This document shows, piece by piece, positions 39,112 to 43,232 of a stretch of 64,000 bases of DNA (position 1 is its first letter; each line of letters opens with the position of its first letter). Below the pieces are notes generated by a model. It made no database searches. It worked only from the letters and a program-made list of their open reading frames with translations, and was not told the DNA's origin. Where the stretch lies: assembly GCF_900660615.1 (NCBI RefSeq), contig NZ_LR215023.1, positions 806,001 to 870,000 on the forward strand, read 5' to 3'. A program made the translations under genes and the position numbers. The DNA comes from Malacoplasma iowae (GTDB lineage Bacteria > Bacillota_I > Bacilli_A > Mycoplasmatales > Mycoplasmoidaceae).

Positions 39112-40128
39112 CTAAGTTTTAATTTTAATTTGATTTATTTTATCAACAGCTGTTTTTTCTATTGATTTTATTTTAGCAATAGATAAGTTAAGTTCATTAC
39201 CAATTTCATCATATGTTTTTTTAGATGCATATGGTTCTAAACCATTAAGCATTGTTATAACTGTGATTTCTTGTTTATCTAATACTTTGTTAATCTCAGA
39301 AATAAATTCATTAGCTTTTGAACTATTTAAATCTTTTGCAGAAAAGAAATTATAGTGGTTAATAAAATTTTCTATTTTATATGAATCAGTACCATTAATT
39401 TTTTTATGTCATGCTGTAATAGATTTAATTTTGTTTAAAACAATATCAACTTTTTCTTCTAATGGTTTGTTTGCATCAACAAGTATATAATCTATTCCAA
39501 AATCCTTACAAACATTAACCATATATTCTTCATATATTTCTAATAGTTTTCTAAAGTATGTTTCATTCTTTTTGTAATTATCAATTTCAATTTTTCTATT
39601 TCTTTCAAACAAACGTTCTTTAAATAGTTTTCAATCCCCTGTTAATATTACATATAATTTTGGTACACCATATTCATAAATTAATTCATATGCAACATCT
39701 TTTCATAAACTATCATAATATGAAAAAACACTTGGCCTTACAATGTTTTCATGTGCAAATAATCAATCTTCAAAAATACTTCTATCAAAAATAGTAATAT
39801 TTTTGTTATTACAATTATTTTTATAATTTTGAAATCTATTCAATACAAAATACAATTGGAACAAAGATCCAAATAGTAAGTTATTTTCTCTTTCATACAT
39901 TTTTTGCAATAACAAATTCATTAATTGATCTTCATCATTTAATTCAAACACTATTTGTGAATCTTTAATTGCTTCATTAATTTTTTTAGCTAATGTTGAT
40001 TTACCAAAAGCAATCATACCCCCAACAACAATACTATTTGATACCTTTATTTTTTTTAAATCAGGTTTTAGTGTGTTAATGTTTGTATCTTGAATTGTTT
40101 TATTATTTCTTTTTTTAAAAAATGTCAT
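39112..40128 (-). CDS. Deoxynucleoside kinase fused to a sigma-70 region-4-like domain
   Basis: 338 residues. Residues about 30-240 are a dNK-family kinase: P-loop GGMIAFGKST at 36-45, FDRSIFED (the DRS substrate motif) and a LID-like Arg-rich segment FKERLFERNRKIE. It would phosphorylate a deoxynucleoside for salvage. The final 58 residues (281-338) read like sigma-70 region 4: LDKQEITVITMLNGLEPY, then KKTYDEIGNELNLSIAKIKS, then IEKTAVDKINQI, matching the family's LxxRExxVIxLRxGL..TLEEIGxxLxVxxxxIxxIExxAxxKLR. This tail is not part of normal dNKs of 200-230 residues. ATG at 40128 is seven bases from GGAG; an upstream TTG is less likely. A role linking salvage to DNA binding is inference. Confidence 0.8.
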
Positions 40129-40223: not shown

Positions 40224-40496
40224 TTAGTTACCACGTAAATTAAGTTTTTTAATAATTTCACGGTATCTATTAATATCAGTATTTTTTAAATAAGTTAATA
40301 AAGATTTTCTTTGTGAAACTTTTTTATATAATCCTCTTTTTGATGTATTATCTTTTTTGTTATCAACTAAGTGGTTTGTTAGCGATGAAATTTCAGCAGT
40401 TAAAATAGCAATTTGAACTTCTGTTTTTCCTGTATTTTTTTCATTACCACCAAATTCTTTAACAATTTTAGCTTTTTCTTGTTTAGTTATAGCCAT
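40224..40496 (-). CDS. rpsO: 30S ribosomal protein S15
   Basis: 90 residues with the S15 pattern: [39 protein letters not shown] and [16 protein letters not shown]. Binds 16S rRNA and organises the platform. Preceded by AGGAAAAAAATATT and a structured leader (40521-40595). Confidence 0.96.
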
Positions 40497-42743: not shown

Positions 42744-43232
42744 TTAATAAAGCAATTTTTTAATTTTATCTTCAATATCAAATGGGGTAATTTTTGGCAT
42801 AATTCTATCTACTACTTTACCATTCTTATCAACCAAAAATTTTTCAAAATTTCATTTCACATTTTTAGCACGTTCTGTTCATTTAATTTCGTTTTTTAAA
42901 AAGTCATACAAAGGCTCAACACCTTCTTTTCCATTAACTTTAATTTTTGCAAACATATCAAATGTAACATTATATTTAGTCTGGCAGAATTCTAAGATTT
43001 CTTCATTTGATTTTGGTTCTTGCATAAAAAACTGATTACATGGAAAACCTAATATTACCAAACCATCATCTTTATATTTATCATATAAATTTTGAAGTTC
43101 TTCATATTGCTTTGTGTTACCACACTTACTTGCAACATTAACAATGATCATAACTTTATTTTTATATTTTGATAAACTTACATCATTTCCTTTAATATCT
43201 TTTACTACAAAATCATATATACTCATACTCAT
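42744..43232 (-). CDS. Glutathione peroxidase family protein
   Basis: 162 residues, thioredoxin fold, thiol peroxidase. The catalytic tetrad positions are visible: Cys37 (NVASKCGNT), Gln67 (GFPCNQF), Trp127 and Asn128 (KWNFEKFL, with the Trp coded by TGA). It would reduce peroxides with a thiol donor, probably thioredoxin. The start ATG at 43232 has AAGG seven bases upstream. It is divergent from the hydrolase gene that begins 47 bases away, so the short gap must hold two promoters. Confidence 0.93.

What the first reader, a model, noticed from the sequence alone, without database searches (positions are those of the whole stretch)
39112..40128. Deoxynucleoside kinase with a C-terminal sigma-70 region-4-like helix-turn-helix
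Seen: one uninterrupted frame has a dNK kinase with P-loop and DRS motif, then an extra C-terminal part whose last 58 residues fit the sigma-70 region-4 pattern (LDKQEITVITMLNGL, TYDEIGNELNLSIAKIKSIE, AVDKINQI). Known: mollicute and Bacillus dNKs end after about 200-230 residues with no DNA-binding domain, and region 4 binds -35 DNA or the RNA polymerase flap. Inference: the kinase could sense deoxynucleosides and act at promoters, or the tail could be a dimerisation helix bundle. It is co-transcribed with leuS. I know of no described fusion of this type.
Basis: partly seen in the sequence, partly recalled or inferred. Interest (0 to 1): 0.78.

Follow-up and report, generated by a model that had tools for sequence, protein, structure and literature searches.

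The report
Deoxynucleoside kinase with sigma-derived tail
In one small group of wall-less bacteria (Malacoplasma), an ordinary DNA-precursor-salvage kinase has acquired a tail derived from the promoter-reading end of the main sigma factor; the tail is kept by selection but has lost the residues that read promoters, so it is probably a re-used protein-interaction module and not a gene switch.

Summary
On the minus strand, 40128-39112, one frame (338 aa, table 4, TGA=Trp) encodes an intact deoxynucleoside kinase (residues ~31-236, fold of M. mycoides deoxyadenosine kinase) followed by a ~100-residue tail. The tail is a diverged copy of the end of the primary sigma factor RpoD: profile-profile E 9e-10; 46-47 bits against Mycoplasmoidaceae RpoD, versus at most 13.6 bits for 3000 shuffles. 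Region 4 is secure; extension into region 3.2 is only suggested. Full-length AlphaFold2, with no RpoD rows, gives the four region-4 helices. The tail occurs in one clade of three Malacoplasma species and is absent from the G005 ortholog in the same rpsO-dNK-leuS setting and from every other family ortholog read. Purifying selection keeps it (dN/dS 0.12). Best reading: a sigma-4 fold exapted as a protein-interaction or assembly module on a working kinase; RNA-polymerase flap docking remains possible. An independent second case was found: a glycyl-tRNA synthetase in another mollicute carries an inserted copy of its own RpoD region 4.

The parts
39112..40128 (-). whole fusion gene, 338 aa, table 4
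   Evidence: open frame ATG..TAG; in-frame in three separate assemblies (G000, G009, G001)
39427..40038 (-). kinase domain, residues 31-234
   Evidence: Pfam dNK E 1.3e-16; model aligns to M. mycoides deoxyadenosine kinase 2jaq, Z 23.0, rmsd 1.7, 184 residues
39994..40023 (-). P-loop GGMIAFGKST, residues 36-45
   Evidence: G36, G37, M38, G42, K43 invariant in 35 aligned kinases
39778..39786 (-). DRS motif, residues 115-117
   Evidence: D115 and R116 invariant in 35 aligned kinases
39115..39420 (-). lineage-specific tail, residues 237-338; first ~35 residues possibly sigma region 3.2/linker
   Evidence: absent from all tail-less orthologs; hhalign to RpoD 324-415, E 9.1e-10; dN/dS 0.116
39133..39324 (-). 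sigma region 4-like helices, residues 269-332
   Evidence: AF2 helices 269-282, 285-295, 306-313, 317-332, blocks of pLDDT 74-92; Sigma70_r4 match 287-331
39133..39180 (-). helix equivalent to the -35 recognition helix, residues 317-332 (IAKIKSIEKTAVDKIN), with base-reading residues replaced
   Evidence: residue table; contact list from PMC4943231
36693..39098 (-). leuS, 13 bp downstream of the fusion gene stop, same strand
   Evidence: start taken at the ATG of MYNHS
40224..40496 (-). rpsO, 95 bp upstream of the fusion gene, same strand
   Evidence: same order rpsO-dNK-leuS in G009 and G005

Best explanation
A working deoxynucleoside kinase (salvage of deoxynucleosides to dNMPs) has been fused at its C-terminus to a duplicated 3' end of a primary sigma factor gene. 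In the ancestor of three Malacoplasma species the copy kept the folded region-4 helical bundle but lost promoter reading. The tail now most likely works as a protein-protein module in cis, altering assembly or affinity of the dimeric kinase, much as terminal extensions do in Giardia deoxyadenosine kinase. Shown by computation: the two-domain architecture, the RpoD ancestry of the tail, its restriction to one clade, purifying selection, and loss of -35-contact residues. Inferred: kinase activity, that the tail folds as predicted, and its assembly role.
For: Kinase intact and like dAK. RpoD ancestry of the tail. Only in G000, G009, G001, which form one clade in RpoD (99/97) and kinase (86/86) trees. 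Tail dN/dS 0.116, bootstrap 0.057-0.208, for G000 vs G009, and 0.44 (0.21-0.78) for G000 vs G001. 11 of 13 DNA-contact residues that are identical in E. coli and Malacoplasma RpoD are changed in the tail, against 6 of 14 other conserved positions (Fisher p 0.046; p 0.077 for G001). The helices of region 4 are predicted. Precedent for terminal extensions controlling assembly and Km of a dAK: PMC11662666. The tail was kept when the gene moved away from leuS in G001. A second enzyme, GlyRS of G016, has independently acquired an RpoD region-4 copy, also with the -35 motif lost (TRERIRQ to SAEEIFQ).
Against: No direct evidence for altered assembly. The recognition-helix stretch (LSxAKIKxxEK) is the best conserved part of the tail, which could mean nucleic acid or other partner binding. 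Three of six listed RNAP-core-binding positions (E555, I565, L598) keep their residue class, so flap binding is possible. Tail-only AF2 from 3 sequences is poor (mean pLDDT 62), and the tail-alone fold search is not significant. The tail-bearing genomes have ribonucleotide reductase, so selection for extreme kinase affinity is less obvious.
Confidence: 0.45

Rival explanations
1. RNA polymerase docking: the tail keeps region 4's other partner, the beta-flap tip, and tethers the kinase to RNA polymerase or competes with RpoD region 4, without reading promoters.
For: RpoD ancestry. E555 is unchanged in all three proteins; I565 and L598 stay aliphatic, positions listed as RNAP core binding in PMC4943231.
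Against: R562 is Leu in all three, F563 is Asn in two, G577 changes in two; the tail lacks the C-terminal residues after the recognition helix (alignment). The branch from RpoD is very long (3.68 changes per site), so both old interfaces have been under changed constraint.
Confidence: 0.25
2. DNA-binding regulator: the kinase senses deoxynucleosides and the tail binds a DNA site other than the -35 element.
For: The helix-turn-helix is the most conserved part of the tail and has invariant lysines (K319, K321, K325).
Against: All base-reading residues and most phosphate-contacting arginines are lost; net charge -1 to +2 versus +5 in RpoD. One HTH per chain would need dimeric display. No target evidence was sought or found.
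Confidence: 0.1
3. Slightly harmful or neutral accretion: a fragment of rpoD became fused by chance and is now kept only so that it folds and does not disturb the kinase.
For: Tail evolves 4-5 times faster than the kinase (dN 0.084 vs 0.018). The GlyRS case in G016 shows that rpoD 3' fragments do get captured by enzyme genes.
Against: dN/dS clearly below 1 over two divergences; no stop or frameshift in three species; tail kept after gene relocation.
Confidence: 0.2

Closest known systems
Mycoplasma mycoides deoxyadenosine kinase (PDB 2jaq/2jas/2jat) and the non-TK1-like dNK family (Pfam PF01712)
   Same: Kinase fold, P-loop, DRS motif, catalytic region; best structural match (Z 23.0)
   Different: The known enzyme ends where residue ~237 of this protein lies; no C-terminal domain
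Primary sigma factor RpoD/SigA, regions 3.2-4 (Pfam PF04545, NCBIfam TIGR02393)
   Same: Sequence homology over ~70-90 residues; same order of four helices; GLxPY loop typical of Mycoplasmoidaceae RpoD
   Different: No regions 1-3; -35 base-reading residues and most DNA-contact arginines lost; no residues after the recognition helix; fused to an enzyme
Giardia intestinalis deoxyadenosine kinase (PDB 8puu, PMC11662666)
   Same: dAK whose extended termini were shown to control tetramer formation and Km; works-like precedent
   Different: Its extensions are short and not sigma-derived
GlyRS with inserted RpoD region 4 in mollicute genome G016 (found here, L187/L204)
   Same: Enzyme carrying an RpoD region-4 copy whose -35 motif is degraded
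   Different: Insertion inside the enzyme, donor is clearly that genome's own rpoD 3 kb away (58% identity), one genome only

Membership tests
Deoxynucleoside kinase (PF01712) | Profile match over the whole domain above the curated cut-off | tested here: met
   61.4 bits, cut-off 27, residues 33-234
Deoxynucleoside kinase (PF01712) | P-loop, conserved Glu, DR(S/T) and lid arginines | tested here: met
   G36 G37 G42 K43 E62 D115 R116 R172 R176 R178 invariant in 35 sequences
Deoxynucleoside kinase (PF01712) | Phosphorylates deoxynucleosides | not testable with these tools
   needs an enzyme assay
Sigma-70 region 4 domain (PF04545) | Profile match | tested here: met
   24.1 bits in the full protein, exactly the cut-off; 26.8 bits for the tail alone; all 3 orthologs match
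Sigma-70 region 4 domain (PF04545) | Four-helix HLHTH fold | tested here: inconclusive
   Helices predicted at the right places in the full-length model, but the tail-only model is poor and its fold search not significant, although the top two hits are sigma A chains
Sigma-70 region 4 domain (PF04545) | -35 recognition residues R584, E585, Q589 | tested here: not met
   I/V/I, A/A/A, S/A/W in the three proteins
Sigma-70 region 4 domain (PF04545) | Binds RNA polymerase beta-flap | not testable with these tools
   3 of 6 listed core-binding positions keep residue class
Sigma factor (sigma-70 family) | Region 2 (-10 recognition, core binding) | tested here: not met
   No region 2 match; the N-terminal part is a kinase. 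It is not a sigma factor

The most novel reading that the evidence does not exclude
The fusion links deoxynucleotide salvage to transcription: the sigma-4-derived tail docks the kinase on RNA polymerase (or competes with RpoD there), so that kinase state alters transcription or dNTP supply is placed at the transcription machinery; more broadly, mollicutes recurrently re-use RpoD region 4 as an add-on domain on metabolic enzymes.
Probability: 0.2. Interest if true: 0.85.

Novelty: new variant of a known kind. Interest (0 to 1): 0.58.

Why it matters
Region 4 of the primary sigma factor is among the most conserved DNA-binding domains in bacteria and is not expected outside transcription. A selected copy of it on a salvage enzyme, stripped of promoter-reading residues, is a clean natural case of a regulatory DNA-binding domain turning into something else. 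The second, independent capture in a glycyl-tRNA synthetase suggests that reduced genomes may do this repeatedly, which can be tested by surveying enzymes for RpoD-derived pieces.

Tried and rejected
Tail as a normal part of the kinase fold: rejected, since orthologs end at ~237 and structural matches stop at 237. Tail as a general HTH of another family: RpoD models outrank all other families. Other Sigma70_r4 hits in the genus turned out to be RpoD, YlxM-like proteins, IS30-type transposases and unrelated HTH proteins, not further dNK fusions. A second own-genome hit of the tail (C1:594033) lies in an aldehyde dehydrogenase-like frame and is chance. Homology of the first ~40 tail residues to region 3.2 taken alone is not significant (G001: 32 of 3000 shuffles reach it; G000 not significant); it rests only on collinear alignment. 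Placing the donor RpoD by a tree failed: the tail branch is too long. Fold search with the full model lists only kinases, as one domain fills the list; the tail-only model gave no significant match. Phage and plasmid records hold no fusion, only plain dNKs. Literature searches found no description of such a fusion, within an open-access library only.

Full report
Observation. The finding lies on the minus strand: ATG at 40128, stop at 39114-39112, 338 codons, four TGA read as Trp. The gene sits between rpsO (95 bp upstream) and leuS (ATG 13 bp downstream), all on the minus strand, so an operon is likely but unproven; consensus scans show nothing above shuffles. The window belongs to a 1.28-Mb, one-contig genome; a near relative's record is titled Malacoplasma sp. 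(L096).

Kinase half. Residues 33-234 match Pfam dNK (E 1.3e-16). P-loop, Glu62, Asp115-Arg116 and lid arginines 172/176/178 are invariant in 35 relatives. The full-length AlphaFold2 model (35 rows, none of them RpoD; mean pLDDT 83.5) aligns best with M. mycoides deoxyadenosine kinase, Z 23.0, rmsd 1.7 over 184 residues. It is the genome's only PF01712 match apart from a weak one to a thymidylate-kinase-like protein. Catalytic activity is inferred.

Tail half. Residues 237-338 match RpoD. NCBIfam RpoD_Cterm is best (E 2e-9), Sigma70_r4 is at or above cut-off. Profile-profile comparison of the three tails with five genus RpoDs gives probability 96.5 and E 9.1e-10 over RpoD 324-415. A tail profile run over 320 genomes of the order finds RpoD-like frames in about 100 of them, usually from tail position 6-12 to 97-98, best E 2e-13 (the loci read are RpoD). 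Tail scores of 27-47 bits compare with at most 13.6 bits in 3000 shuffles. Region 4 is therefore secure. The first ~40 residues align collinearly with region 3.2 but are not significant on their own. AlphaFold2 places helices at 269-282, 285-295, 306-313 and 317-332, the order expected of region 4, with a low-confidence hinge at 243-247. Tail-only modelling with three sequences was poor (pLDDT 62) and its fold search not significant, so the fold is predicted, not demonstrated.

Distribution and origin. Of the orthologs in the order, only G009 (92% identity) and G001 (67%) share the tail. G005, with the same rpsO-dNK-leuS order, ends at the kinase and leuS follows directly. None of the other relatives fetched from 84,980 species or from viral contigs has it (the best 80 of 224 genome relatives were read). 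The three carriers form one clade in an RpoD tree (99/97) and a kinase tree (86/86), so one gain, in their ancestor or before with loss in G005, is enough. In G001 the gene lies elsewhere, next to a glutathione-peroxidase gene, with its tail intact. The tail's branch is too long to place the donor; the GLxPY loop fits Mycoplasmoidaceae RpoD.

Selection. G000 against G009: tail dN/dS 0.116 (bootstrap 0.057-0.208), kinase 0.026; G000 against G001: tail 0.44 (0.21-0.78), kinase 0.18. The tail is translated and constrained, though less than the kinase.

What it has lost. PMC4943231 lists -35-contact and core-binding positions of E. coli region 4; PMC8407463 gives R584, E585, Q589 as the -35 readers. 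In the three tails these are I/V/I, A/A/A and S/A/W. Of 13 contact positions identical in E. coli and Malacoplasma RpoD, 2 (G000) and 1 (G001) are kept, against 8 and 6 of 14 other conserved positions (Fisher p 0.046 and 0.077). The E. coli sequence and its numbering in that comparison were written from memory. Net charge of the 50-residue core falls from +5 to -1, 0 and +2. Of six core-binding positions, E555 is unchanged and I565 and L598 stay aliphatic; R562 is lost in all. The conserved LSxAKIKxxEK stretch shows that this surface still matters.

Mechanism. I commit to a working kinase whose RpoD-derived tail is an exapted helical module acting on assembly or affinity of the kinase (0.45). 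Giardia dAK is a precedent in which terminal extensions set tetramer formation; their removal raises Km about 50-fold (PMC11662666). Rivals: flap docking (0.25), neutral accretion (0.2), DNA-binding regulator (0.1). Against strong pressure for affinity, the carriers encode ribonucleotide reductase.

A second case. In mollicute genome G016 the glycyl-tRNA synthetase gene carries an in-frame insertion of about 90 residues, absent from its relatives, where the flanking matches (query 1-130 and 220-534) are directly adjacent in the genome. The insert is 58% identical to G016's own RpoD, encoded 3 kb away, and groups with it in the tree (99/97). Its recognition motif is changed from TRERIRQ to SAEEIFQ. 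This is one assembly and needs confirmation, but it shows that capture of RpoD region 4 by an enzyme gene is not unique.

Verdict. Real, well above chance, not described in the library searched. The architecture is new; each half is a known kind.

Noticed in passing
L187 (G016:C1:308500-314500), L204: Glycyl-tRNA synthetase with a ~90-residue in-frame insertion that copies region 4 of the same genome's RpoD, encoded 3 kb away; relatives G013-G015 lack it. Further glyS-like fragments lie nearby (G016:C1:316583 and 320375).
   Followed up: partly
L073 (G005:C19): An 878-residue (incomplete) protein of unknown function containing a sigma region-4 motif with an intact TRERVRQI recognition sequence.
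   Followed up: no
L185 (G261:C26) and L186 (G285:C1): Two RpoD-like genes in tandem in G261 and a second, shorter sigma factor (351 aa) near rpoD in G285: mollicutes with more than one primary-type sigma.
   Followed up: no
window about 2227-2349 and about 60 further places in G000: IS30-type transposase present in some 60 near-identical copies in this genome (weak Sigma70_r4 matches).
   Followed up: no
window 42744-43232 and L005 2523-3017: A glutathione-peroxidase-like gene lies 2.6 kb upstream of the fusion gene here and directly downstream of it in G001, where the kinase gene has left the rpsO-leuS setting.
   Followed up: no
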